Program-made: the position numbers and the translations under genes
Assembly: GCF_004210375.1 (NCBI RefSeq)
Contig: NC_134832.1
Location: 157,725,592-157,789,591, forward strand
DNA: 64,000 bases
From: Tachypleus tridentatus
Lineage: Eukaryota; Arthropoda; Merostomata; Xiphosura; Limulidae
Direction of reading: 5' to 3'
Part shown: positions 2,271 through 63,561 of the stretch, one piece after another
Layout of the letters: each line of letters opens with the position of its first letter
How positions within the stretch are numbered: position 1 is the first letter of the stretch
Notes under the pieces: model-generated
The model's database searches: none
Told to the model about the DNA's origin: nothing
The model's input: the letters and a program-made list of their open reading frames with translations, nothing else

Positions 2271-2736
2271 AGTTTTTCTCCATAAACTTAAAGCAAAAAC
2301 TTCGTATTGATTTACTCAGCATCTCATGTGATTAGTTATTACCATAAATCTACATAATCTTTCACAACATTAATATCTGTATGTCACCGCTAGGAGAAAC
2401 TTGTCTCGGTTTCATAATACATGAAAACTCAAAATTAACGTGCTGTTTCGAGAAAGTGAGTTAGCACTTTAACATAGTTAAAAATTCATAGTTTAACTAA
2501 ACGATCGAAAATGTACAAACTTAATGGTAACAGAAACGTCACAAAATAAAATTAAAATCTGCTATCTCACAGTAATGCTATCTCACATTATCGACTTTTC
2601 AAAATGTTATGAGACCAGATTTAATTCTAAAGTAAACAATGTTTCAAGTTGTTGTTTGATCAACAGTTTTTCGACTTGCTTTCAAGTTTAATGACTCAGA
2701 AGTTACAGAATTCTTCTAAAGACTGGTGAAAGTAAC
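2271..2736. other. Intergenic, nothing recognised
   Basis: AT-rich, no coding or repeat signal. Confidence 0.4.
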
Positions 2737-3037
2737 GTTAAGTTCATTGTTTTTTTGTTGTTTTTGAATTTCGCACAAAGCTACTCGAGGGCTATCTGCG
2801 CTAGCCGTCCCTAATTTAGCAGTGTAAGACGAGAGGGAAGGCAGCTAGTAATCACCACCCACCTCCAACTCTTAGGCTATTCTTTTACCAACGAATAGTG
2901 GTATTGACCGTAACATTATAACGACCCCACAGCTGAAAGAGCGAGCACGTTTGGTGCGACCGGGATTCGAGCCCGCGACCCTCGGACTACGAGTCGAACG
3001 CTTTAACACGCTTGGCCATACCGGGCCGTTAGGTTCA
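2737..3037 (-). mobile_element. SINE-A, full length, with TSD
   Basis: Complete minus-strand copy. The head (right end, 3027) reads CCGGGCC inward on the plus strand and the tail ends near 2747. The B-box region GGGATTCGAGCCCGCGACC is clear. Flanks GTTAAGTTCA (2737-2746) and GTTAGGTTCA (3028-3037) form a 10-bp target-site duplication with one mismatch. Confidence 0.9.
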
Positions 3038-3407
3038 ATAAATCACGTTGTTTGAAGAATTATATTTACATAATAAACATAATATCTGATAAAACAGATA
3101 TTAAAAATATGTTATACTGTGTTACTCACTAAGTTTTTTTCTGAAAACTTAAAAACAAAGATATTCCAGAATTGTATGTTTGATGTTGAAAAAAAACCTA
3201 ATTTTAGGGACAAAGAAAAAGAACTTTTTTGTTTTATTTTTATATACGCATTACGTATTCTTAGATTTAGTTCGACTGACCTTATGTGTCAGTTAAACTA
3301 AGTTCAGCTATTAAAACAACTCAACATTTCCGATAAAAATAGACGTAAAACACTGTAAACATTTTATTTTTTATTTGAGTTTTTACAGTAGAAATACAAT
3401 GTATACA

Positions 3408-3581
3408 TAGATTTTATCTAAAATTGTAAACTAAAATAGAATGACTAGAGCTGACAGGAACATTTCATATGTTACGTTGTTTAATTACACATTTTGTTTT
3501 ATCTAAAATTGTAAACTAAAATAGAATGACTAGAGCTGACAGGAACATTTCATGTTACGTTGTTTAATTACACATTTTGTT
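3408..3581. repeat. Direct duplication, ~83-bp unit, 2 copies
   Basis: TTTTATCTAAAATTGTAAAC...ACACATTTTG is present twice in a row and nearly identical, differing by a short indel near CATATG. It is a recent local duplication. Confidence 0.85.
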
Positions 3582-4815
3582 CGACTTGCAAAGCAAAAAT
3601 TCGCCGAGTAATTTCATCACTAACTGAACAATATAAACAAGAATTATTTAAACACACACAACAGAGAAATATTATGACACGGGATTCATGGTTTCATAGT
3701 AAGGTGAATTCGGTTTGTCGGTTGATGGTATTAGCTTCTGCTGGTACATTTTGATTGTGAGTAGCTTCAGTTCGTGTTCCGAGCCAACTAGCTGCTTTCC
3801 GGGTTTGTGATCTAGGCTCGCCAGACGATAAAATCGCAGGCTATTGCAAAAAGATCTCGTTTTTGATGTCCATTTTGGTCATTTTCCAGAAGGATGAAAC
3901 ATGAAAGAAGGACAACATAAAGGGAAGTCCGGCCTCATTTGTGGCAATAATAGTTTTTGTGCTTTTGACACCCTAACAGTGTCTGCCACTTATAATATCG
4001 TAAGCTGGTGTTTTCCGTATCCAGAATTGTGCAAGTTCACACATATCTTCTCCAATAACACGGACCGATAAAAGCTAGAATTTTTAAGTTACGATAGCAT
4101 GAATTCAGTAAATTAATTTAGAGTATTTGTCTTTCCGTTATGTCACCAAATATTAACACAGTTAACAGACCTTCACACCGTACATGTTGTGATCGTCCGT
4201 AAGTTAAAAAGTATATCAACCATTTTACTCAAACCCTATTATACTGATACATAATGGATTAACTAACACATTGATGGTTAAATGTGGTAAGTACATGTGT
4301 CTATACAAAATATGTGTTATTTTTAGAATAATTCATTCATAATAACTTGAGGAAGTACATCAAGAAACAATACAAAACATGAACAATATGTGAAGTAAAC
4401 AAGTGTAATAACATAACAACTAAGGCTGACGGTGGGAAACATATCAGAATCTATTAAATGTTTTACATACATATATACTATTGATAAATTATAAATAAAG
4501 TTGAACCTCAATGAAAAACAAAATCATTGTTTATTACAACCCTTGTCTTTTCAGAAAGTTCATTTCGCTCAGAACATTAAAAAGGCAGTAAGCTAACAAA
4601 ACTCGTCGTCAACTCTTTGGCTACTCTTGAGTGATCTGTTGATGTATATGACTGTCACACTTAGTGTAGCCACGGCTACAAGAAGAAGTTGTGAACATAT
4701 TTTTTTTAAAAGTAACGAACGAAAATAATTAGTTTTTGAAACTGATAAAATGGAGGCAGAATACAAAAAGAACAAATTACAATAAAGTCAAGACTGAGTA
4801 ATAATGTGAAGTTAA
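3582..4815. other. Intergenic, nothing recognised
   Basis: Open frames here are short, AT-driven and unsupported by splice sites. No transposon family recognised. Confidence 0.35.
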
Positions 4816-4822
4816 AGTGTGT

Positions 4823-6055
4823 GTGTGTTTTGTTTTAACAAAGTCACATCGGGATATCTGTTTTGTTTTAACAAAGCCACATCGGGATATCTGTATTGTT
4901 TTAACAAAGCCACCCACCTCGGGATATCTGTTTTGTTTTAACAAAGTCACATCGGGATATCTGTATTGTTTTAACAAAGTCACATCGGGATATCTGTATT
5001 GTTTTAACAAAGCCACCTCGGGATATCTGTTTTGTTTTAACAAAGTCACATCGGGATATCTGTTTTGTTTTAACAAAGTCACATCGGGATATCTGTTTTC
5101 TTTTAGGAAAGCCACATCGGGATATCTATTTTCTTTTAACAAAGTCACATCAGGATATCTGCTTTCTTTTAGGAAAGTCACATCGGGATATCTGTTTTCT
5201 TTTAACAAAGCCACATCGAGATATCTGTTTTCTTTTAACAAAGTCACATCAGGATATCTGTTTTCTTTTAACAAAGTCACATCGGGATATCTGTTTTGTT
5301 TTAACAAAGCCACATCGGGATATCTGTTTTGTTTTAACAGAGTCACATCGGGATATCTGTTTTCTTTTAGGAAAGCCACATAGGGATATCTATTTTCTTT
5401 TAACAAAGTCACATCAGGATATCTGCTTTCTTTTAGGAAAGTCACATCGAGATATCTGTTTTCTTTTAACAAAGTCACATCAAAATATCTGATTTCTTTT
5501 AACAAAGCCACATCGGGATATCTGTTTTCTTTTAACAAAGTCACATCGGGCTACCTGTTTTCTTTTAACAAAGTCACATCAGGATATCTGTTTTCTTTTA
5601 ACAAAGTCACATCGGGATATCTGTTTTGTTTTAACAAAGCCACATCGGGATATCTGTTTTGTTTTAACAGAGTCACATCGGGATATCTGTTTTCTTTTAG
5701 GAAAGCCACATCGGGATATCTGTTTTCTTTTAACAAAGTAACATCAGGATACCTGTTTTCTTTAAACAAAGCCATATCGGGATATCTGTTTACTTTTAAC
5801 AAAGCCACATCGGGATATCTGTTTACTTTAAACAAAGCCACATCGGGCTACCTGTTTTCTTTTAACAAAGCCACATCGGGATATCTGTTTTCTTTTAACA
5901 AAGCCACATCGGGATATCTGTTTTGTTTTAACAGACTCACATCGGGATATCCGTTTTCTTTTAACAAAGCCACATCGGGATATCTGTTTTCTTTTAACAA
6001 AGCCACATCGGGATATCTGTTTTCTTTTAACAAAGCCACATCGGGATATCTATTA
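4823..6055. repeat. 33-bp minisatellite grown from a SINE-B tail
   Basis: About 37 tandem copies of a 33-bp unit, in short TTTTCTTTTAACAAAG then YCACATCGGGATATCTG. The unit is the last 33 bp of SINE-B (TTTTCTTTTAGCAAAG, CCACATCGGGCTATCTG; compare 60443-60480). The last unit runs straight into the SINE-B head at 6050-6130, so the array is an in-place expansion of that copy's tail. Unit variants (TTTTG versus TTTTC, GGAAAG versus ACAAAG, TCAGG versus TCGGG) recur in the same order at a 330-bp offset (5340 versus 5670), i.e. a 10-unit higher-order repeat. Because 33 is divisible by 3, both strands carry long open frames with an 11-residue period. I treat those as artefacts. Confidence 0.93.
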
Positions 6056-6130
6056 AGCCATCTGAGAGGAATTGAACTCCTGATTTAAGCGTTGTAAATC
6101 CGTAGACTTACCGTAGTACTAGCGAGTCTC
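6050..6130 (-). mobile_element. SINE-B head attached to the 33-bp array
   Basis: GAGAGGAATTGAACTCCTGA followed by TTGTAAATCCGTAGACTTACCG is the tRNA-like head of SINE-B on the minus strand. Compare 60490-60550. It directly continues the final unit of the minisatellite. Confidence 0.85.
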
Positions 6131-6565
6131 TACTATGTAACCAGATGTTTATATGAAATAAGTTTGGACACGTTCATGTATTTTATTCAACTGGAATTCA
6201 GAAATGATTTTTATGTCTTTTCAAAAGATTAGTAAAGCATAGTATTATATTAACTTTAAAAGTGAACCAGTACCTTGTCGCTATATTTAGACATGTTTAC
6301 AGCTAAAGCAAAACAAGAACTGTTATTTCTATCTGTAGAAAACCAACAAGAATTTTAAGCAATGTTCACCTATTGTTATACTACTACGAAAGAATAGAAA
6401 GTTTAATGTATTTAAGTGAAAATGTCCTGCATGGTCGCTGATGAAAAGCAGAATTTTGTTTTGAAATGTTACGATATGTTATAGGCTTTATCAAAAAATG
6501 GCCATCTAAGGATATTTGGTTTGTTTGGAATTTCGTGCAATGCTACACGATGCTGGTATGGATGT
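6131..6565. other. Spacer between arrays, nothing recognised
   Basis: AT-rich, no coding signal. Confidence 0.4.
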
Positions 6566-6905
6566 AAGTCTAAAGTAATATATGTAAATAGACTTAGTGA
6601 ACACATTGGATGTAAATCTAAAATAATTTCAATAAATAGCCCTAGTGAACACATTGGATGTTAGTTTAAAATAATATAAATAAATAGACTTAGTGAACAC
6701 ATTGGATGTAAGTCTAAAATAATATAAATAAATAGTCCTAGTGAACACATTGGATGTAAGTCTAAAATAATGTAAATAAATAACATAGTGAACATATTGG
6801 ATGTAAGTTTAAGATAATATAAATAAATAACGTAGTGAACATATTGGATGTAAGTTTAAAATATTATATATAAATAACGTTGTGAACATATTGGATGTAA
6901 GTTAA
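6566..6905. repeat. Minisatellite, ~45-bp unit
   Basis: Seven to eight copies built around GTGAACACATTGGATGTAAG plus an AT-rich arm ending AAATAAATA. Later copies read GTGAACATATTGG, and the right-hand units are shorter. Confidence 0.9.
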
Positions 6906-6950
6906 AGATGTATAATGGGTGAAAAATTAAGCTTTCTTTCTTTCTTTCTT

Positions 6951-7047
6951 TGAGATAAAGCTTTCTGCAACCTGTTCACCACGGGTATCGAAATCCGGTT
7001 TCTAGCGCTATAAGTCCGTAGACATTCCGCAGTTCCACTGAGGGGTG
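6951..7047 (-). mobile_element. SINE-C fragment
   Basis: CCACGGGTATCGAAATCCGG, then TAAGTCCGTAGACATTCCGC, is the head of the SINE-C family read on the minus strand. A (CTTT)n tract (6934-6951) takes the place of the usual tail. Confidence 0.65.
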
Positions 7048-7081
7048 AAATACTAAGAATATAGCTTTAAAAATAAGAGAA

Positions 7082-7535
7082 CATTACAAACAATCATATA
7101 GCATTACAAACCATCATATAACATTACAAACAATCATATGACATTAGACAATCATGTAACATTACAGACAATCATATAACATTACAGACAATCATATAAC
7201 ATTAAAAACCATCATATAACATTACAAACAATTATATAACATTACAGACAATCATATAACATCACGAACAATCATATAACATTACAGACAATCATATACC
7301 ATTACAAACAATCATATACCATTACAGACAATCATATAACATTAGACAATCATATAACATTAGAGACAATCATATAACATTACAGACAATAATATAACAT
7401 TACACACAATAATATAACATTAGAGACAATGATACAACAGTATAGACAATCATATAACATTACAGACAATCACATAACATTACAGACAATCATATAACAT
7501 TACAGACAATTATATAACATTACAGACAATCATGT
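7082..7535. repeat. Minisatellite, 20-bp unit
   Basis: About 22 copies of CATTACAGACAATCATATAA, with some units losing 1-4 bases (ATTAGACAATC). The simple-sequence-like unit gives no coding potential. Confidence 0.93.
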
Positions 7536-7764
7536 AGATTATATATGAAACAATGAATAATATGTTTGTTTCTAATGCCTAGAAAAACAAGTTGTTACTG
7601 TTAGCCACCATTTGATTTTACAGGCAGAAAAACAAACTGTTTTTCAAAATACAGAACATGGAAATTAACGGAAAAATATTGAAGACGATACACAGAGAAA
7701 GAGTAAATACAGTAAACCTTGACAGATATAAAATGTTTGGATGCAAAGTTAATAATTAAGATAC

Positions 7765-8288
7765 AGTGACACATGATGAAGAAATGAAACACATGATGAT
7801 AAAACTTGTATAAAATATATTGTTTAAAGTTTGACACAGATATAGTGACACATGATGAAGAAATGAAATACATGATGATAAAACTGGTATAAAATATATT
7901 GTTTAAAGTTTGAGACAGGTATAGTGACACATGATGAAGAAATGAAATACATGATGATAAAACTGGTATAAAATATACTGTTTAATGTTTGAGACAGGTA
8001 TAGTGGCACATGATGAAGAAATGAAATACATGATGATAAAACTGGTATAAAATATATTGTTTAAAGTTTGAGACAGGTATAGTGACACATGATGAAGAAA
8101 TGAAATACATGATGATAAAACTGGTATAAAATATACTGTTTAAAGTTTGAGACAGATATAGTGACACATGTTGAAGAAATGAAATACATGATGATAAAAC
8201 TGGTATAAAATATACTGTTTAAAGTTTGAGACAGGTATAGTGACACATGATGAAGAAATGAAATACATGATGGTAAAACTGGTGTAAA
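7765..8288. repeat. Minisatellite, 79-bp unit
   Basis: Between six and seven copies of a 79-bp unit marked by GTGACACATGATGAAGAAAT and ATGATGATAAAACTGGTATA. Copies are over 90% alike by eye. Because 79 is not a multiple of 3, the minus strand shows staggered, overlapping 61-aa open frames every 79 bp, which are shadows. Confidence 0.95.
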
Positions 8289-8545
8289 AGTCAGTAGTAC
8301 GAGTGCACAAATCTTGAACATCTAGTAAAGTTTAATTCGTCAACGTTCTCAATCGATTTAGTTCTGAAATTTAACCCTAATTGTTAAAGACACTTTCTGA
8401 GATGTCGCTGAAACATATAAAATATAACAATAAACAAGATTTAGTGAATATATATTTTATATACGTTTTATTTCAGTTGTGGAATATTCGATTTAAAATG
8501 TTTCATTACAATTAAAGTTGTAAAAAACATTCAACCGTAACTCAT

Positions 8546-8634
8546 GTTGTTTTTTCAGAGAAAACTACGTAGGGCTATATGCGGAGAATCGAACCTCGTA
8601 TATCAGTTTAGACATTTCGCTGTTCCACGTGTAA
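8546..8634 (-). mobile_element. Degenerate SINE-B
   Basis: TAGGGCTATATGCGGAGAAT, CGAACCTCGTATATCAG and GACATTTCGCTGTTCCAC follow the order tail, B box, A box of SINE-B on the minus strand, with heavy divergence. Confidence 0.5.
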
Positions 8635-9180
8635 CCTCTAAATCGATCGATTGAACTCCAATAAGTAGACAGAAACTGTTTAAACATAGTGTACAATATT
8701 CCTTGAGTTTATATCCTCTCGTAACACGCAAGAGAAACAAAATGATAAAATGTTCGCAGACCTTAACTGAATATTTACATTGGTTACAGTAAATCATTGA
8801 TGTTTGTTTGTAGAGACGATTCATCAATTGGTTTAAGATTTCCAATCACAAAACATATTTATTTTATTCTAAATTATAGCCATATATCTATAGTTCAAGT
8901 GTTGTGAAATCTAATGTGAATTGTAAATATTATGTTAAATGTAGTTACACTACAGGGAGTTATGTTGTGATTCAGCTATGTTACCTATACATATTCACGT
9001 GTTATCATCCGGGAACTGTTTAGTAGTACAAATACACGATTCTTTGTGATATTGTTTAAAACATAGCATGAAAGTCCTTAGTAACAGGACCTTTAAAAAC
9101 GTATTGTTTGAAAAACCATGTGCACATCATGACTTCATTATTCTTGGCCAATATCTACAACGTCTTGTTTCAAGCAAGCA
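8635..9180. other. Spacer, nothing recognised
   Basis: AT-rich sequence between the SINE-B relic and the next minisatellite. Confidence 0.4.
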
Positions 9181-9181
9181 A

Positions 9182-10068
9182 ATGCACAATACAAGTTAAA
9201 GAGATGTATAGAACGAAGTTAATACACAATACAAGGTAAAGAGATGTATAGAAAGAAGTTAATACACAATACCAGGTAAAGAGATGTATAGAACGAAGTT
9301 AATACACAATACTAGGTAAAGAGATGTATAGAATGAAGTTAATACACAATACTAGGTAAAGAGATGTATAGAACGAAGTTAATACACAATACAAGGTAAA
9401 GAGATGTATAGAATGAAGTTAATACACAATACCAGGTAAAGAGATGTATAGTACGAAGTTAATACACAATACAAGGTAAAGAGATGTATAGAACGAAGTT
9501 AATACACAATACCAGGTAAAGAGATGTATAGAACGAAGTTAATACACAATACTAGGTAAAGTGATGTATAGAACGAAGTTAATACACAATGCTAGGCAAA
9601 GGAATGTATAGAACGAAGTTAATACACAATACTAGGTAAAGAGATGTATAGAACGAAGTTAATACAAAATACTAGGTAAAGAGATGTATAGAACCAAGTT
9701 AATACACAATGCTAGGTAAAAAGATGTATAGAACGAAGTTAATACGCAGTACTAGGTAAAGAGATGTATAGAACGAAGTTAGTTTACAATACTAGGTAAA
9801 GAGATGTATAGAACGAAGTTAATACACAATACCAGGTAAAGAGATGTATAGAACGAAGTTAATACACAATACTAGGTGAAGGGATGTATAGAACGAAGTA
9901 TGGTAAGGGGGTGTAGAATGAACTCAGTACACAATACTAGATAAGAGGGTGCAGAATGAAGTTAATACACAATACTAGATAAGAGGGTGCAGAATGAAGT
10001 TAATACACAATACTAGGTAAGAGAGAGTAGAATAAAGTTAATACATAGTGTTAGGTGATGGAGTGTAG
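9182..10068. repeat. Minisatellite, 40-bp unit
   Basis: About 22 copies of a 40-bp unit, AATACACAATACTAGGTAAA then GAGATGTATAGAACGAAGTT. The last four units (from about 9895) are shortened and diverged (GAGGGTGCAGAATGAAGTT), so the right edge looks older. Variation is mostly at the base after AATAC/ATAC (A, C or T). Confidence 0.95.
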
Positions 10069-10576
10069 AATGTGGTTACAACACTGGATTATGAACAGAT
10101 TTATGAGGCTTAAGATGTTATCCTTTAGGATTTCCACACAACCAGTAGGCACGAATCCATAATGTTAAAGGTTTACTTGTTAATTTCTATCCAATTCGAA
10201 ATTCACCGTGCAGTTTCACAAGTTATCATTGCAATGAAATAGGTGTATTACATTAAGAATCGTCTTAGAACAAATTAATTCTGGTAAGAGATTCCCAAGG
10301 TGCGAATGAAAGAAATAATATAAGAAGGTTTTACTCGTATTTCTAAATTATATTAGAGAAATGTAATCGAAAGCATTATGAGACCTAAACTGTCTCATGT
10401 GATTGCTAAGATAAAAGAAGATATAATGTAATGTAATGTAATAGAATTATATGATATTCAACATTATATAATCATATTACTCAGGCGATCTTGACTGACA
10501 GTGTGACGTGTACATTAAATCATCAAATTATTTACGGTATTCTGACAGAAATAACCTTTTACCTTTGTGTGGAAGT
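10069..10576. other. Intergenic, nothing recognised
   Basis: Includes a short (TAATG)n-like stretch near 10425-10441. No coding signal. Confidence 0.4.
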
Positions 10577-10698
10577 TTTGTTTGCTTTGTAATGTTTAGA
10601 GCAAAGCCAATTTAGGCTATCTGTTGTATCTACCACCGGGAATCGAACCTTGGATTTTAGTGTTGAAAGTCAGTAAGATTGAAGCCGTCCCACCAGAG
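10577..10698 (-). mobile_element. SINE-B copy
   Basis: AGAGCAAAGCCAATTTAGGC, TATCTGTTG, CGGGAATCGAACCTTGGATT, TTGAAAGTCAGTAAGATTG and CACCAGAGGG follow SINE-B tail-to-head order on the minus strand. Confidence 0.65.
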
Positions 10699-12339
10699 GG
10701 ACAAAATAATAAAAGAAAATATAGCAAAGAATTATGGACAGTTTTATCACCTCGAAAAACAGAAAAAAGGCAATACATATATGAGTTAAAACACTTTAAT
10801 TTATTAATATATGTTTATGTTTGTAAAGTTAACGATATTTTATCCTAATTATGTGAACATTTTTAGTAATCATATCTTCTTTATGAAAAGCATTGTGAAT
10901 GCCTTAACAATTTATTTTGCATGATTCCCATCATTTGCTTGTAACCCTAGTTTGGTGCAATGTGGAGAAAATTAATATTGATAAAGTTAAGTAAACAAAA
11001 TTACAAGGAATGATTGCGTTGAAAACAGCAAATCCAAATCTTTGACTAATTATATTAGTTTGTTTTAGCCTAAAAACAAGCCGAAAACAAAAATAAATTA
11101 TAAAAATAACAAACAAAATAAAAAACGCTGCACTAAATGAAATGATCCCAGGATACAAGCTATAATGTGGGATATAAAATGTACCCTAGGTTTTGGAGGT
11201 AACTGAAGTAGTAGGCCCCACACTATGGTGGGGATACACCGTCTTAACCTCCATTAGCCAGTCTCACATAAAGAAAGAAAATAAAGGAATAGCAATAGAT
11301 ATAGAAATAGAAAATAGAAATTGGGAGAGCAAGATGTGGGTGCTGAAGCCCACAACGTCCCACATCCATATCACCCTTCACTGCCTGCAGGGAGTTATGG
11401 GAAGGTGACTGATTTCCAAAGTAAAGAAGAAAATAATGAATTGAAAAATAAATATAAGGTAAGAATAAGAAAAAGAAACAAACAATCTGTAACAGTTTCA
11501 TCAACTGACATTCACACCTCAACTTAGTCAACAATAACTTCATCTCTGAGAAATACATTGCTGGTATTTACACTTCATAATGATCCACGATGACTCTACC
11601 ATTGCACTTTACAGCTCACAATGGTTAACACTAACTTCTAAACCTTTTTCGTTGTTATCTGCTAAAAATGTTCAGTATAGACTTTTTTTATCTAAGTGAA
11701 ACATTAGCTAAATAGGCTACTAATTCATTTTCTCAGGTAGTTATTATTTATCACGCATGCGTTGATCACAATCGATCAAGTCTACTAAACAGGAGCCATT
11801 TTTGAATAAACCAGCGCCATCTTCAGGCAGACTGTGAGTGTCATATTTCTTATTCTCATTAACCAATAAACTCCATAATTCCTCCATAGCCTATTTGTAT
11901 TGATTCAAGAAAGTTACGGTTTGATGAGCCAACAGAAAGTCTCATTCATTTATTACCCTGGTTTTTTTTTTACCATTTCCAAATCCCATGTAATTAAATT
12001 AATACTTCCTACAATAAAAGTTAGAAATTGAAGAATTAACAAAAATGTATAAAAGTGGTCTTTACAAATTCACGTTTCCTTTCTAAGAGAAACTGATAGT
12101 TCAAATGAAATACATACTGTATAAACTTACAAAGTGGTTTGGCATGAAAATGGGTTAAAAATTTACAATTATAGAATTGATTTTCTCGAAAAATCACAAA
12201 CTAATTAAAGTTATCAAGAGCATATATTTAAAAACTACTGCAGGCAACAGTATAGTCTGTCAAAATTACATGGAATTTATCAGTTGCTTCTGAGTATAAG
12301 ATACAAATGAAAGTCTGATATTGTTTCATCCATACACTT
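10699..12339. other. Unclassified intergenic sequence
   Basis: No supported gene. The stretch 11160-11420 is more GC-rich than its surroundings (GGCCCCACACTATGGTGGGG) and shows overlapping open frames on both strands. It may be an unrecognised transposon part, but I can assign no family. Confidence 0.3.
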
Positions 12340-13612
12340 ACCATTTGTAAGGCAAGTGTTAAGATAAATACCTCGGTCACACACCCATTCAGTTTAAATG
12401 CAGGCATGCCCCAAGGGTCTGTACTCAGCCCAGTACTTTATAATATATATATTAATGACATAACTTTTCAGAAAAAAAGTTCAAAAACATTAAACTTAAC
12501 CTCAATAAAACTAACATCATCTTCACAAAGTCTATCACTTTTCTAGGCCTTACCATGACTCACAACCTATCTTGGACACCACACTTTCAGAAAATCGCTA
12601 CCCGAGCAAGTAATAGAATTTTCTTTCTTAAACGTATTAGTGGCCCCAACAAAGGCTGTTCTCCCAAAATTATTCTCGCAATATACAAAGCATTCATTAG
12701 ACCCCTTTTCGAATATGGTAGTGCAGCCACATGTAACATGACTGAAGGACAATACTCAGTGTTACAAAACCTGCAAAACCGCACCATTAAAACCGCTTAC
12801 CGCCTTCCCAACTATACAACCGCAACATACCTCAACTTCCTAACTCAACTATTACCAATTCAGGATCGATTCATCAAACTTACCAAACGATACTACACTA
12901 AAGCTACTGACAGAAACTCCCAAACTCGCCATTTATTCCGACTGGCAGACACACCTCAAAGTATACTTCACCATTAAACTGGACTACTAACCACAGGGAC
13001 CAGTACTAACCATTACCGATAAAACAGACAATGCTGTGTTACCCATTTATATGTCATTAATGTTTTTACATTCCAGGTTGGGCACTGGGTTGGTATTGTT
13101 TTTCCGCGCCCACCCAGTGAAAGTGGTTTTCTCCGGGTACTCCGGTTTCCCCCACATTTAATTTCTCGCCATTTGATTTATAGATCCCCCGCACCCTAGC
13201 TCTGAAAGGACCTTCTGTCTCTCTTCCTCTCACTCTCCACACTATCCTCTTTCCTATCTTTCTCTCCATATTTTATTCTCTTTCTTTCTTTCTTTCTCTC
13301 TCCCCTTTCTCTGTCCCTCCTTATGTCACTGGTTCTTTTAAAAATTTGTGACCTGCTGCAGCTTGGTCTCCCTGCTCGTGATCATGATGATTTCCGTCCA
13401 AAGTGTACCAGTCCAGCTCTCCCGCTCCTCAACTTTCCTATATTATCGTTATTTTCTGTAATACATCATTCAATTGGTTTTTTCTACCTTTCTCCTCACG
13501 ACACATCTTACCTTATACGCGTGTGGGGCTGAAGAGAAACAAAAGTTTCTGAGCGCCCCAGGTTTGCCTTAAGGGTCTCCTTTAAGGACTTTAAAACCTA
13601 AACTACTACTAA
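12340..13612 (+). mobile_element. 5'-truncated Jockey-like LINE, RT lacking YADD box
   Basis: Remnant of a non-LTR retrotransposon. In one frame near 12355-12470 it reads ...INTSVTHPFSLN then AGMPQGSVLSPVLYNIYIND, the reverse-transcriptase box before the catalytic YADD motif. About 25 bp later the sequence resumes in another frame with LNLNKTNIIFTKSITFLGL. The whole YADD segment is therefore deleted. The following 140-residue frame (12555-12977) carries the typical C-terminal region: LSWTPHF, R...IRPLFEYGS, LQNLQNR, and ends at TAA. The 3' UTR (12978-13612) holds TTTTCTCCGGGTACTCCGGT, a pyrimidine-rich tract (13205-13320), and a trinucleotide-like end CTACTACTAAG. This is the Jockey/I-type arrangement. 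The exact clade is uncertain. The element is dead because the 5' part and catalytic box are gone. Confidence 0.85.
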
Positions 13613-15230
13613 GTCAGAAATAAATAATAAATAAGTAATCCATACCCGGTTGACCTAGTTTCCAGATATTTTTCGTTGCTTCAGCGTCTCTGACATTTGT
13701 GTTTCTTCGAAATGTTGCAGAACTTTTTCCGAATTGTTCTAGCGAACCAAGTTTGTTTAGAAAATTTAAATTGGTATTTGAACATATAAACATTTACATT
13801 GCAAAGGCCTATTATATACCTTTTCCAAAAGCGAGCAATCTTTGGTTACAACAAGATATCTACGAAATGCTAAGCTATGTCATAAAGAAGTTCTGATAAA
13901 TTCTGTTGTACTTCGACTTCATATCTCATTGATTGTCACATTAGTTGCCAGTTTGCATATTCAAAACGGTTTTGGTGTGGTTTATTCATTCCTATAAACT
14001 GAAGAGTATGATAACTCTAAATTTCAAAGGCAGCCTGGCACTGATACAATACCAATAATATCACGAGTTCTTCTTCATCATTTCCCTGAAATATCCCTTG
14101 CAGCTCATCTTTAGTATCAATTAATAAAATAAGATTAATGTTCCAAGAGTATCCTATTGGTGTTACTATAAACATATTCAAAGATTGTATAGATCTACTT
14201 AGCATGTTGAATTTGGCGATATCACTTATAAGACTGGAGTCGTGATTAATTGGATCAGTGTATAGACGTACAAATGTTCCAATGGTTTGTCTTTAGAATG
14301 TGTGGGATTTATGGTAATATTCATAGGAATTAGAGGTAGATATGTTTACCAATCATATTTCCACATGGACAAGTCCTCCCATAAAAATTATGAGAATCTG
14401 ATTTCATGTTCTTTCGAAAGTAATAAATTGTTCACTTTAGATTATTTGGAAATGAAGCCTCAGTGTTATATAAAAATGATACTGCTCACGTGGATTTATA
14501 TTGTGAGTATTTTTAACACAATTGTAAGCAGTCTATTTCGTGCATTTATTTTGTTGAGAAACGCACTTGAAGATAAATAGTTTAGGAAACATTCTGAAAT
14601 GAGTTACTTAAAACTTTTTATTACGAGATTCAAATAATATTCAACATTTTTAGGTTATAGAGCGACTGGGAAGGATATTTGAAGTAACTAGTAAAGGGAG
14701 AAACCTCAGTCAACAACGCGATAATCACCCTGTGAATAACCCTAATCCAAAAAAAGAATTAACAACAAAATACTTTCATTCTGGTAAAAAAATAGAAAGC
14801 AAACACAATACTAATGTCGTATATAAATTACATGATAGTAAGTCTCATGTATTTTAAGTCGGGGAAGCAACACCATAACTCTGAAAATTTTTTTTTTTTA
14901 AATTGCACCTCAGGTAAGTATAACATTCGTAACATTTACTTACCAAAGAGGAAATTCAACATCATAAAACAATAAACCTAATAATTCCTTCTAATACAAG
15001 AGTAAAACCACTCTAAACCTATGCAAAGTAAAACACTTTTATACCTATATTTAAAACTTTTATTAAATATTGTTGTGTGTATTACAACTTGAATGTGGGA
15101 CTCTTAAATTATAACATGTAAATCATTAATCGCGTTTCAATACTCATGGTAGGGATAACACAGATATCACATTGTGTGGCTTTCTGCTTAATTCTAAACA
15201 AATAAATCGACCACTTCTTCACTGTACCTC
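13613..15230. other. Intergenic, nothing recognised
   Basis: Open frames at 13699-13896 and 14287-14580 have AT-rich, low-complexity translations and no convincing splice or family signal. Confidence 0.35.
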
Positions 15231-15352
15231 ATGTGTGTGTTTTTTTTTCTTATAGGAAAGCTGCGTCGGGTTATATGCTGAATACACGGAGAGGAATCGA
15301 GCCCCTGATTTTTGAGTTGTAAATCCGTAGACTTACCACTGTATTCAGCGAA
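15231..15352 (-). mobile_element. SINE-B copy
   Basis: TGTGTGTG tail, TCTTATAGGAAAGCTGCGTC, GGGTTATATGCTGAA, GGAATCGAGCCCCTGATTTT and TTGTAAATCCGTAGACTTAC give a full minus-strand copy. Confidence 0.85.
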
Positions 15353-24004: not shown

Positions 24005-25005
24005 CATTGTCTAGACAAGATGAAAGTACGGTAACAATTAAATGTCAAGTGTTCTACTCAATTTATTGTTATATAACTAGACAAGATAAAAGTACGTTTA
24101 TAATTAAATGTTAAGTGTTCTACTCAATTTATTGTTATATAACAAGACAAGATGAAAGTATGTTTATAATTAATTGTCAAGTGTTCTACTCAGTTTATTG
24201 TTATATAACTAGACAAGATGAAAGTACGTTTATAATTAAATGTTAAGTGTTCTACTCAATTTATTGTTATATAACAAGACAAGATGAAAGTATGTTTATA
24301 ATTAATTGTCAAGTGTTCTACTCAGTTTATTGTTATATAACTAGACAAGATGAAAGTACGTTTATAATTAAATGTTAAGTGTTCTACTCAATTTATTGTT
24401 ATATAACTAGACAAGATGAAAGTACGGTAACAATTAAATGTCAAGTGTTCTACTCAATTTATTGTTATATAACAAGACAAGATGAAAGTACGGTAACAAT
24501 TAAATGTCAAGTGTTCTACTCAATTTATTGTTATATAACAAGACAAGATGAAAGTACGTTTATAATTAATTGTCAAGTGTTCTACTCAGTTTATTGTTAT
24601 ATAACTAGACAAGATGAAAGTACGTTTATAATTAAATGTTAAGTGTTCTACTCAATTTATTGTTATATAACTAGACAAGATGAAAGTACTGTTATAATTA
24701 ATTGTCAAGTGTTCTACTCAGTTTATTGTTATATAACTAGACAAGATGAAAGTACGTTTATAATTAAATGTTAAGTGTTCTACTCAGTTTATTGTTATAT
24801 AACTAGACAAGATGAAAGTACGTTTATAATTAAATGTTAAGTGTTCTACTCAATTTATTGTTATATAACTAGACAAGATGAAAGTACTGTTATAATTAAA
24901 TGTCAAGTGTTCTACTCAATTTATTGTTATATAACTAGACAAGATGAAAGTACGTTTATAATTAAATGTTAAGTGTTCTACTCAATTTGTTGTTATATAA
25001 ATTAA
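24005..25005. repeat. Minisatellite, 66-bp unit
   Basis: About 15 copies of a 66-bp unit marked by GTGTTCTACTCAATTTATTG, TTATATAACTAGACAAGATG and AAAGTACG. Two main unit types alternate (GTTTATAATTAAATGTTAA versus GTAACAATTAAATGTCAA). Since 66 is divisible by 3, units lacking the in-frame TAA fuse into an 87-codon frame (24379-24642), which I reject as a gene. If the 23.7 kb exon belongs to the membrane-protein gene, this array is intronic. Confidence 0.95.
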
Positions 25006-35555: not shown

Positions 35556-35674
35556 GTGCCTCGCTGGTACAGCAGTAACTCTACAGATTTACAATGTTAA
35601 AATTAGTGATTCAATTCCCCTCGGTGGACTCAGCAGATAGCCCAATGTGGCTTTGCTATGAGAAAAACACACAC
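35556..35674 (+). mobile_element. SINE-B copy
   Basis: GTGCCTCGCTGGTACAGCAG, CTACAGATTTACAATG, GATTCAATTCCCCTCGGTGG, then CAGATAGCCCAATGTGGCTT and TGCTATGAGAAAAACACACA. This is a plus-strand full copy in the intron between the two main exons. Confidence 0.9.
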
Positions 35675-54872: not shown

Positions 54873-55280
54873 TTTTTAAACAGCTTATCTAATCAATAAT
54901 TCATAAAACTAACTTAGCAGCACCAATGCTACATATCTTTTAAATGCCATATAAATACATGTTCAGAGTGTTAAATAAAAAACAACATATATAACACACG
55001 TAGTGTTGTTTCTTATATCGGAGTTCAGGTTATAACAGTGAAAAATACATGGACCTAAGTAGGTTGCTATCTGCTTTTAGTTTCTTTTTATTTTAATATT
55101 GGTCAAATAGTAGACTTCTAGCGGTACACTGTGTTAAAAATCTACATAGCAATTGGAAGCATCCAGACGGTAAGTTGTTTTAATAATAGAAGAATTAATA
55201 GCTTGCCTTAAAATGGTAAGTAGTGTTAACAATACAGGAAGTGATTAGTAGCTCTGAAAGAGAAGTGTCCTAGAGAAGGT
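54873..55280. other. Spacer, nothing recognised
   Basis: No feature recognised. Confidence 0.4.
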
Positions 55281-57125
55281 TTCACAGTAGTCACACTAAG
55301 TACACATTACATAACTCTAGAACTGTTTCACATCAGTCACACTAACCACACAATTCATAACTCTAGAACTGTTTCACATTAGTCACTAACTACACATTAC
55401 AAAACTCTAGAACCGTTTCACATTAGTCACACTAACTACACAGTACATAAGTCTGGAACTGTTTCACATTAATGACACCAACTACACAGTACCTAAGTCT
55501 GGAACTGTTTCACATTAATGACACCAACTATACAGTACATAACTCTAGAATTGTTTCACATTAATGACACCAACTATACAGTACATAACTTTCGAGCTGT
55601 TTCACATTAATGACACTAACTGTGCAGTACATAAGTCTAGAATTGTTTCACATTAATGACACCAACTATACAGTACATAACTTTCGAACAGTTTCACATT
55701 AATGACACCAACTATACAGCGCATAACTTTCGAAGAGTTTCACATTAATGACACTGACTACACAGTACATAACTTTTGCACTGTTTCACATTAATGACAC
55801 TAACTATACAGTACATAACTTTCGAACAGTTTCACATTAATGACACCAACTATTCAGTGCATAACTTTCGAAGAGTTTCACATTAATGACACTAACTATA
55901 CAGTACATAAGTCTATAATTGTTTCACATTAATGACACCAACTATACAGTACATAAGTCTGGAACTGTTTCACATTAATCACACCAACTATACAGTACAT
56001 AAGTCTGGAACTGTTTCACATTAATGACACTAACTACATAGTATATACGTCTGGAACTGTTTCACATTAATGACACCAACTATACAGTACATAGCTCTTG
56101 AATTGTTTCACATTAATGACACCAACTATACAGTGCATAACTTTCGAAGAGTTTCACATTAATGACACTGACTACACAGTACATAACTTTCGAACTGTTT
56201 CACATTAATTACATTAACTGTGCAGTACATAAGTCTGAAACTGTTTCACATTAATGACACCAACTATACAGTACATAACTTTCGAACTGTTTCACATTAA
56301 TGACACTAACTATACAGTACATAACTTTCGAACAGTTTCACATTAATGACACCAACTATACAGTGCATAACTTTCGAAGAGTTTCACATTAATGACACTG
56401 ACTACACAGTACATAAGTCTGGAACTGTTTCACATTAATGACACCAACTATACAGTACATAAGTCTGGAACTGTTTCACATTAATCACACCAACTATACA
56501 GTACATAAGTCTGGAACTGTTTCACATTAATGACACTAACTACATAGTATATACGTCTGGAACTGTTTCACATTAATGACACCAACTATACAGTACATAA
56601 CTTTCGAACAGTTTCACATTAATGACACCAACTATACAGCGCATAACTTTCGAAGAGTTTCACATTAATGATACTGACTACACAGTACATAACTTTCGCA
56701 CTGTTTCACATTAATGACACCAACTATACTGTACATAACTTTCGAACTGTTTCACATTAATGACACTAACTATACAGTACATAAGTCTATAATTGTTTCA
56801 CATTAATGACACCAACTATACAGTACATAAGTCTGGAACTGTTTCACATTAATCACACCAACTATACAGTACATAAGTCTGGAACTGTTTCACATTAATG
56901 ACACTAACTACATAGTATATACGTCTGGAACTGTTTCACATTAATGACACCAACTATACAGTACATAACTCTTGAATTGTTTCACATTAATGACACCAAC
57001 TATACAGTGCATAACTTTCGAAGAGTTTCACATTAATGACACTGACTACACAGTACATAAGTCTGGAACTGTTTCACATTAATCACACCAACTATACAGT
57101 GCATAACTTTCGAAGAGTCTCACAT
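55281..57125. repeat. 46-bp minisatellite with higher-order repeats
   Basis: About 40 copies of a 46-bp unit built on GTTTCACATTAATGACACCA, ACTATACAGTACATAAGTCT and GGAACT. Several unit types occur (ending GTCTGGAACT, CTTTCGAACA, CTTTCGAAGA or CTCTTGAATT). The rare type with TACATAGTATATACGTC occurs at about 56041, 56547 and 56915, exactly 11 and 8 units apart, with matching neighbours. Multi-unit blocks were therefore copied. The left edge (55290-55450) is the most diverged. Confidence 0.95.
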
Positions 57126-59382: not shown

Positions 59383-59503
59383 GTGTGTGTATTTTCTTAT
59401 AGCAAAGCCACATTGAGCTATCTGCTGTGTGCACCTAGGATAATCGAATCCCTGATTTTAGCGTTGTAAGTCCATAGACTTACCGCTGTACCAGCGGAGG
59501 ACA
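59383..59503 (-). mobile_element. SINE-B copy
   Basis: TGTGTGTATTTTCTTATAGC, AAAGCCACATTGAGCTATCT, GATAATCGAATCCCTGATTT and TAGACTTACCGCTGTACCAG. A near-complete copy. Confidence 0.9.
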
Positions 59504-60355: not shown

Positions 60356-60660
60356 GGGTGCCCGCAGGGGGATAGGGGCACTCGCCCCAAACAAAAATGA
60401 GAATCACAGTCATTTCTTTATACATTCAGAACTTACATGTGTGTTTTTCTTTTAGCAAAGCCACATCGGGCTATCTGCTGAACCCACCAAAGGGAATCGA
60501 ACCCCTGATTTTAACGTTGTAAATCCGTAGACTTACCGCTGTACTAGCGGGGGACCTGAATTTACATATGGGTTGTTTATTCATTTCACAATTTCTTACT
60601 ACTTTGCCCCCATCTTAAAAACTTTGCCCCTACCTGGAAATATTTTTGAGGACTCCCCTG
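60356..60660. mobile_element. Possible TIR element hosting a SINE-B
   Basis: Left end GGGTGCCCGCAGGGGGATAG...GCACTCGCCCC and the complement of the right end (CCAGGGGAGTCCTC...GGTAGGGGC) are G-rich and loosely inverted. Repeats with GCCCGCAGGGGG ends are common in invertebrates. The class here is uncertain. Confidence 0.35.
60429..60569 (-). mobile_element. SINE-B, full length, TSD, nested
   Basis: Element 60441-60557, the best minus-strand reference copy: TTTTTCTTTTAGCAAAGCCA, CATCGGGCTATCTGCTGAAC, GGAATCGAACCCCTGATTTT, TGTAAATCCGTAGACTTACC. Flanks GAACTTACATGT (60429-60440) and GAATTTACATAT (60558-60569) match at 10 of 12. Confidence 0.92.
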
Positions 60661-60790: not shown

Positions 60791-60899
60791 TTTAGACAGT
60801 GGTAAGTTTACGGACTTACAACGCTAAACTCGAGGGTTCGATTCCCCTCTGTGGACACAGCAGATAGTCCAATGTGGCTTTGCTCTAGAAAAAACACAT
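60791..60899 (+). mobile_element. SINE-B copy
   Basis: ACAGTGGTAAGTTTACGGAC, TTACAACGCTAAACTCGAGG, GTTCGATTCCCCTCTGTGGA and CCAATGTGGCTTTGCTCTAG. Immediately followed by a SINE-C in the same orientation. Confidence 0.88.
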
Positions 60900-62678: not shown

Positions 62679-62826
62679 CTCTGTACCAACCCCCCCCCCC
62701 GCTAGTACAGCGGTATGTCTCCGGATTTACAACGCTAAAATAAGGGATTCGATTCCCCTCGGTGGACTGAGTAGATAGCCCTTTGTGGCTTTGCTATACG
62801 AAAAACACACACACTCCTCTGTACCA
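62679..62826 (+). mobile_element. SINE-B, full length, exact 10-bp TSD
   Basis: Element 62689-62816 starting in a C-run, then GCTAGTACAGCGGTATGTCT, GGATTCGATTCCCCTCGGTG, TTTGTGGCTTTGCTATACGA and AAAAACACACACAC. Identical CTCTGTACCA flanks at 62679-62688 and 62817-62826. One of the freshest insertions here. Confidence 0.94.
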
Positions 62827-63191: not shown

Positions 63192-63450
63192 AGTGTTTTG
63201 TTTTTAATTTCGCGCAATGCTACACGAGGGCTATCTGCGCTAGCCGTCCTTAATTTAGCAGAGAGAAGGCAGCTAGTCATCACCACCCATCGCCAACTCT
63301 TGAGCTACTCTATTATCAACGAATAGTGGGATTCACTGTATCATTATAACACTCCCGTGGCTGATTGGTGCGACGAGGATTCTCACTCGCTACCCTCAAA
63401 TGACGAGTCGAACACCTTAACCCACATGGCCTTGCCGGGCCTAGTGTATT
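63192..63450 (-). mobile_element. SINE-A with two internal deletions
   Basis: Tail TTTTAATTTCGCGCAATGCT, body missing GTGTAAGACTAGA and the link before TTGGTGCGACGAGG, head GGCCTTGCCGGGCC (63441). AGTGTTTT / AGTGTATT flanks are a possible target duplication. A SINE-B follows directly. Confidence 0.88.
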
Positions 63451-63561
63451 TTTTCTTATAGCAAAGCCACATCGGGCTATCTGCTGAGTTTACTGAGTGG
63501 AATCGAGCCCCTGATCTTAGCGTTGTAAATCCGTAGACTTACCGCTATACCAGTGGGGAAC
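63449..63561 (-). mobile_element. SINE-B copy
   Basis: TTTTTTCTTATAGCAAAGCC, ACATCGGGCTATCTGCTGAG, GGAATCGAGCCCCTGATCTT and TAGACTTACCGCTATACCAG. Confidence 0.92.

What the first reader, a model, noticed from the sequence alone, without database searches (positions are those of the whole stretch)
4823..6130. A 33-bp minisatellite caught growing out of a SINE tail
The ~37-unit array has a unit identical in length and nearly identical in sequence to the last 33 bp of the SINE-B family. The final unit continues without a break into that SINE's own tRNA-like head (6050-6130). Seen directly: the shared 33-bp text, and the contiguous head. Inference: tail slippage or unequal exchange turned a single retroposon insertion into a 1.2-kb satellite. 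This is a clear origin story for one minisatellite and a possible seed for wider satellite families in this genome.
Basis: partly seen in the sequence, partly recalled or inferred. Interest (0 to 1): 0.75.

Follow-up and report, generated by a model that had tools for sequence, protein, structure and literature searches.

The report
SINE-tail minisatellite inside a dispersed repeat
In a horseshoe-crab genome the tail of one small retroposon has multiplied into a tandem array, and that same insertion is found in dozens of copies of a larger repeat with about 1 to 77 tail units each, which shows a minisatellite arising from a mobile element.

Summary
Window 4826-6050 holds 37 units (36 of 33 bp, one of 37). 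The unit matches nucleotides 76-108 of a ~118-nt tRNA-headed SINE, and the array joins that SINE's head at 6051-6127.

The "single local insertion caught growing" is only partly right. The whole genome (horseshoe crab by coagulogen, probably Tachypleus tridentatus) holds 57 copies of this head. By script 54 of 57 have the same flanking DNA on both sides; two more fit by eye. An 11-bp target-site duplication encloses SINE plus array. So one SINE inserted once, into a larger dispersed repeat (about 17 kb or more). Its copies carry 1 to 77 units (52 measured, median 7); 39 of 57 lie on one 69.8-Mb sequence, C19. Copies whose flanks differ by 0.3% can differ by 34 units, so length changed after dispersal. 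Neighbouring 48-bp and 20-bp arrays in the same repeat vary too, so the lability is not special to the SINE tail. The window copy has lost the head-side target duplication and the first 7 nt of the SINE.

A second SINE-B tail array (C3, ~10.5 units of 45 bp) arose separately, apparently seeded by one SINE inserting into another's tail. This is a known kind of event, here unusually well documented.

The parts
4807..4817 (-). 3' copy of the 11-bp target-site duplication (CTTTAACTTCA on the minus strand); its partner is deleted in the window copy
   Evidence: the head-side copy is present in 56 of 57 copies, not in the window copy
4818..4825 (-). (CA)4, the original 3' end of the SINE
   Evidence: SINE-B consensus ends in (AC)n
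4826..6050 (-). 37-unit minisatellite made of SINE-B tail (consensus nt 76-108): 36 units of 33 bp, one of 37
6051..6127 (-). tRNA-like head of the SINE, without its first 7 nt
6559..6906 (+). 48-bp minisatellite in the host repeat, 7.3 copies here, 4.3 to at least 22 in other copies
7080..7533 (+). 20-bp minisatellite in the host repeat, 22.9 copies here, about 3 or fewer to at least 27 elsewhere
2319..11991 (+). part of the host repeat shared with C19 copies (mostly 86-97% identity); C19 copies go on past both edges with other shared sequence, and C9 and C10 copies match to the end of the query at 14000
   Evidence: (7 of 20,993 candidates scored)
15235..15343 (-). one of seven ordinary single-tail SINE-B copies in the window; others at 35559-35674, 59383-59497, 60438-60552, 60796-60898, 62697-62814, 63450-63558
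   Evidence: two diverged partial matches (10596-10675, 6974-7037) not counted

Best explanation
A tRNA-headed SINE (SINE-B) inserted once, with an 11-bp target-site duplication, into a larger sequence that later spread. After insertion its 3' tail, without the final (CA)n, was duplicated in tandem and became a minisatellite. The surrounding repeat (about 17 kb or more) spread to at least 57 places, 39 of them on C19, and in its copies the array kept changing length by gain and loss of blocks of units (unequal exchange or replication slippage). The window holds one such copy with 37 units; a 19-bp deletion between two ACT triplets removed the head-side target duplication and the first 7 nt of the SINE. 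Shown: tail origin of the unit, common insertion site, enclosing target duplication, series of lengths, length change among copies with nearly identical flanks. Inferred: slippage or unequal exchange as the mechanism, and that expansion began after insertion.
For: Unit = SINE-B nt 76-108. 57 heads genome-wide at up to 3 mismatches, 0 in the backward control; a shorter pattern adds one place at 2 mismatches (not read) and seven at 3, against 7 in its control. 37 of 37 places assembled from 68 loci have head and array joined in the same register (30 of the 68 loci were fetched by the head itself, but the 20 places fetched by the array alone all have it). All 57 were read: 54 have both the head-side target duplication and the 3' flank by script; L081 fits by eye, C8 (the window) has lost the head side but keeps the flank beyond it, C19:12393757 has lost the 3' flank. 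52 of 52 3'-flank matches pair with a head; units 1.0 to 77.0, median 7. Flank pairs under 1.2% apart: 105, of which 15 differ in unit number; 0.28% flank divergence separates a 33- from 67-unit copies. In the window array units 12-15 equal units 22-25 (lag 10) and 27-29 nearly equal 19-21 (lag 8), so blocks were duplicated. The seven other window SINE-B copies each show one tail (by eye).
Against: No empty site was found (0 matches at up to 3 mismatches), so the target duplication rests on sequence identity, not on a pre-insertion allele. The only one-unit copy (C19:10265336) lies beside a 14-unit copy in a tree without outgroup and without support values shown, so it may be a contraction. 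203 of 977 unit-like matches in the genome are unplaced. Array lengths come from one assembly.
Confidence: 0.87

Rival explanations
1. The tail was already multiplied when the SINE inserted, for example by reverse-transcriptase slippage or template jumping on the tail, so the founder had several units at birth.
For: All 57 copies have at least one unit and share one insertion; no single-tail founder can be proven. Repeated tails on SINE or LINE 3' ends are known (recalled).
Against: No other insertion site with this head and a multi-unit tail was seen (one further head-like place not read); 37 of 40 scored SINE-B-like places match with one tail; lengths differ among copies with nearly identical flanks, so they went on changing.
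Confidence: 0.2
2. A composite VNTR retroposon, SVA-like, that moves head and array together as one unit.
For: Head plus array occurs at 57 places.
Against: By script 54 of 57 have the same DNA on both sides of the head-array unit; the moving unit is the larger repeat, shared with gaps over about 17 kb between two C19 copies.
Confidence: 0.03
3. The 33-bp satellite is older, and the SINE acquired its tail from it or inserted beside it.
For: 977 unit-like matches genome-wide (up to 3 mismatches) against 774 in the 57 held loci: 203 are unplaced.
Against: The unit is an internal part of a SINE found with single tails, and the (CA)n end and target duplication lie beyond the array. The surplus is of the size expected from single tails: 30-252 for an assumed 240,000 copies. 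By eye, 100 of 100 listed exact matches fall in the 57 loci; the rest of the list was not shown.
Confidence: 0.04
4. Seeding by nested insertion: a SINE-B landing in the tail of another SINE-B creates a tandem tail dimer that then expands.
For: L099 (C3:106438300-106439100): SINE-B head and 10.5 units of 45 bp, with ACAGATAGCCT, part of an older SINE-B tail, on both sides (read by eye).
Against: In the window family the target duplication CTTTAACTTCA is not tail sequence, so this explains L099 only.
Confidence: 0.05

Closest known systems
SINE-derived satellites (sSats) of squamate reptiles, Vassetzky et al. 2023 (PMC10702118; abstract and sections 3, 5, 17 and 19 read)
   Same: Tandem unit is a portion of a tRNA SINE; the array ends in a longer unit that runs to a SINE terminus; unit number varies widely; unequal recombination or repeated insertion into the same locus is proposed.
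   Different: Here a horseshoe crab; the unit is 33 bp of 3' tail; both SINE ends and the target duplication are preserved in most copies; 57 copies descend from one insertion dispersed by a host repeat. The authors say it is uncertain whether sSats are restricted to squamates.
Minisatellites from Alu, B1 and LTR elements (review PMC6947457, section 3.1 read)
   Same: Minisatellite born inside a transposable element, explained by slippage or unequal crossing-over between short repeats.
   Different: Here the retroposon's own tail is the unit, and many parallel copies show a series of lengths.
SVA-type composite retrotransposons (recalled)
   Same: VNTR as an internal part of a dispersed element.
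   Different: The VNTR is not what moves; the flanks are shared between copies.

Membership tests
SINE-derived satellite (sSat) | unit corresponds to a portion of a SINE present elsewhere in the genome | tested here: met
SINE-derived satellite (sSat) | terminal unit continues into the SINE up to its terminus | tested here: met
   head at one end, (CA)n at the other
SINE-derived satellite (sSat) | several loci with many monomers | tested here: met
   52 measured loci, 1 to 77 units; but all from one insertion
SINE-derived satellite (sSat) | subtelomeric preference | tested here: inconclusive
   39 of 57 on C19, spread over 1-64 Mb; chromosome ends not known
tRNA-derived SINE | dispersed copies, simple-repeat tail, target-site duplications | tested here: met
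   TSD-like repeats seen by eye at window copies 60429 and 62696, the other five not settled
tRNA-derived SINE | tRNA-like head with Pol III boxes | tested here: inconclusive
   B-box-like GGTTCGATTCC by eye; ARAGORN finds no tRNA in the window
tRNA-derived SINE | transcribed by Pol III and mobilised by a partner LINE | not testable with these tools
   needs RNA and retrotransposition assays
composite VNTR retroposon (SVA-like) | head and VNTR inserted together at unrelated sites | tested here: not met
   54 of 57 share both flanks by script
minisatellite / VNTR | unit of about 10-60 bp, number of units varies | tested here: met
   variation among individuals not tested

The most novel reading that the evidence does not exclude
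The host repeat, concentrated on C19, is a large mobile or chromosome-specific amplified unit whose way of copying turns internal sequences, SINE tail included, into length-variable arrays. The SINE tail would then be a bystander, and C19 a minisatellite-generating chromosome.
Probability: 0.2. Interest if true: 0.6.

Novelty: new member of a known kind. Interest (0 to 1): 0.4.

Why it matters
It gives a clear case of minisatellite birth. The original element, its end and its target duplication are still visible in most copies, and 57 parallel copies of one event carry 1 to 77 units. That is a natural replicate experiment on array growth and loss, and it takes SINE-derived tandem arrays, described in detail for squamates, to a chelicerate. 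It also warns that one window is not enough to tell a local expansion from a dispersed one.

Tried and rejected
Composite VNTR retroposon: rejected, because the flanks are shared. Pre-existing satellite: no support, though 203 of 977 unit-like matches remain unplaced; a random-mutation model of single tails gives a number of that size, but its 240,000 copies are extrapolated from one window. Empty site: none at up to 3 mismatches. Tail-tail junction pattern: 19 matches, all at 3 mismatches; by eye none looks like a tail-tail junction, and the pattern does not cover all spacings (L099 has a longer one). Terminal inverted repeats of the host: none convincing in 500-600 bp at the limits shared by two C19 copies, and those limits look like later insertions, so the host class stays open. 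Palindrome idea from four '+ then -' pairs about 10 kb apart on C19: the middle of one pair has no inverted repeat of 60 bp or more and the second arm was not reached. Fold of tail and unit RNA: no strong signal (z -1.41 and -0.67). Tree: of 57 rows, four are unreliable (C19_29719k and C19_34849k long branches; C19_35930k and C19_12392k 3' flank not found); no outgroup, midpoint root, support not shown, so direction of change is not settled. Aligning arrays of 33 and 67 units gave 91-95% identity, but alignment of repeats is ambiguous, so I do not rest the rate claim on it. Unit splitting stopped early in some arrays (825 units), so totals come. Five of 57 heads have no 3'-flank match within 3 mismatches; their arrays as held are about 34.8, 28, 13, 5 and 2.9 units and are not in the median.

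Full report
What was claimed.

The array. TRF gives 37.0 copies of a 33-bp unit at 4826-6051. Read on the minus strand, which is the SINE's sense, the order is: head (6127 to 6051), 36 units of 33 bp and one of 37 bp (6050 to 4826), (CA)4 (4825-4818), and the 11 bp CTTTAACTTCA (4817-4807).

The SINE. Seven other copies with head and tail lie in the window, each followed by a single tail, mostly ending in (AC)n; two more diverged partial matches were not counted. Against a consensus written from the seven, 26 alignments inside the array fall at about nucleotides 76-108 with 85-91% identity. So the tail origin of the unit is shown.

The genome. The window lies in a 2.167-Gb assembly, C8:157725592-157789591. 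The coagulin family, a horseshoe-crab clotting protein, matches 19 places and 0 of 14 control genomes, and 90 residues equal PDB chain 1aoc_A 'COAGULOGEN'. That 1AOC is from Tachypleus tridentatus is recalled, so the species is probable, not shown.

Genome-wide census. A 36-bp head-tail pattern finds 57 places at up to 3 mismatches with 0 in the backward control. A shorter, looser pattern finds the same 57 and adds one place at 2 mismatches, which I did not read, and seven at 3, against 7 in its control. All 57 were read: 37 places assembled from 68 loci, 20 fetched. By script, 54 of 57 have both the head-side duplication and the same 3' flank. Of the other three, L081 has the flank with a small deletion (by eye), C19:12393757 has lost it, and C8, the window copy, lacks 19 bp at the head side, removing the duplication and the first 7 nt of the SINE, while the flank beyond is the same. 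Hence all descend from one insertion. 39 of 57 lie on C19, which is 3.2% of the assembly; 1.8 would be expected. That figure treats copies as independent, which they are not. None of the 43 rows, mostly single-tail SINE-B copies, lies on C19.

Length series. 52 of 52 3'-flank matches pair with a head. Units run from 1.0 to 77.0, median 7; 17 of 52 have seven units, and 12 of 14 fetched copies of one seven-unit group have an identical array. Five of 57 heads have no 3'-flank match and are not in these figures. Of 105 pairs of copies with flanks under 1.2% apart, 15 differ in unit number; a 33-unit copy is 0.28% apart in flanks from each of two 67-unit copies. Array length therefore changes faster than the surrounding DNA. 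In the window array units 12-15 recur as 22-25 and units 19-21 nearly as 27-29, which points to block duplications.

The host repeat. Window 2319-11991 matches several C19 copies, mostly at 86-97% identity (7 of 20,993 candidates scored), and three of those copies share more sequence beyond both edges. Two C19 copies match, with gaps, over about 17 kb. No convincing terminal inverted repeat was seen at their shared limits, and the limits look like later insertions, so its class is open. It is rich in minisatellites: in the window six further TRF arrays lie at 3412-3581, 6559-6906, 7080-7533, 7765-8289, 9181-9899 and 9902-10071, the last two adjoining with related units. In the 37 assembled copies the 48-bp array ranges from 4.3 to at least 22 units and the 20-bp array from about 3 or fewer to at least 27, several being cut by the end of the stretch; two of 37 copies show neither. 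The SINE tail is thus one of several labile arrays.

Independent cases. A query of SINE-B with three tails had 40 of 171 candidates scored: 37 match with one tail only (judged by the limits of the match, not read), one is the present family, and two are independent. L099 on C3 has a SINE-B head and 10.5 units of 45 bp, and the sequence ACAGATAGCCT on both sides belongs to an older SINE-B tail, so a nested insertion probably made the first tail dimer (read by eye). L098 on C8 has a 40-bp duplication across head and tail, two copies.

Mechanism. Shown: one insertion, tail-derived unit, lengths changing after dispersal. Inferred: slippage or unequal exchange. Not settled: whether expansion began before or after insertion; the one-unit copy could be a contraction, and no empty site was found. 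Also not settled: 203 of 977 unit-like matches lie outside the 57 loci at places not listed; a simple model gives 30-252 from single SINE-B tails.

Comparison. SINE-derived satellites are described in 56 squamate genomes; their authors write that it is uncertain whether they are restricted to squamates (PMC10702118, abstract and sections 3, 5, 17, 19 read). A review treats Alu- and B1-derived minisatellites (PMC6947457, section 3.1 read). A 2025 review names SINEs among sources of satellite DNA (PMC12692304, passages only). A horseshoe-crab genome paper, of which I saw passages only, says SINEs are a small part of repeats there (PMC7815833). Seven searches of the paper library, each showing only the top 10-20 of 59 to 1,411 papers, listed no title or abstract start on a SINE-tail minisatellite in a horseshoe crab; that is all that can be said about print.

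Verdict. A real, well-documented case of a known kind: a minisatellite from a SINE tail, carried to 57 places by a larger repeat rather than caught growing at this locus.

Noticed in passing
C19 of G000 (69.8 Mb): The host repeat is concentrated on C19 (39 of 57 heads); four '+ then -' pairs lie about 10 kb apart (13187103/13197101, 13572058/13582658, 17819033/17829200, 37554094/37564694). C19 might be a sex chromosome or an amplified region.
   Followed up: partly
window 2746-3027 and many other places: A second SINE family (SINE-A, ~275 bp) has a 3' end resembling the SINE-B tail (GCAGATAGCCC...GCTTTGC), which could pair as a hairpin; both may use the same partner LINE (by eye; folds the SINE-B tail this way, z -1.41).
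   Followed up: partly
window 3412-10071: Six further TRF minisatellites (85, 48, 20, 79, 40 and 38 bp; the last two adjoin and are related) in under 7 kb of the same host repeat.
   Followed up: partly
L077:983-2838 (C19): Broken hAT-like transposase beside the host repeat (Pfam Dimer_Tnp_hAT 4.5e-6 and a zinc finger), outside the part shared with another C19 copy.
   Followed up: no
window 24011-25000 and 55279-57125: Two more long minisatellites, 66 bp x 15 and 46 bp x 40; origin not examined.
   Followed up: no
window 12459-12977: 172-codon open frame that looks by eye like the end of a LINE reverse transcriptase; no Pfam match.
   Followed up: partly
L069: The coagulogen gene region on C11 carries its own tandem array near L069:1900-2450 (repeated open frames).
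   Followed up: no
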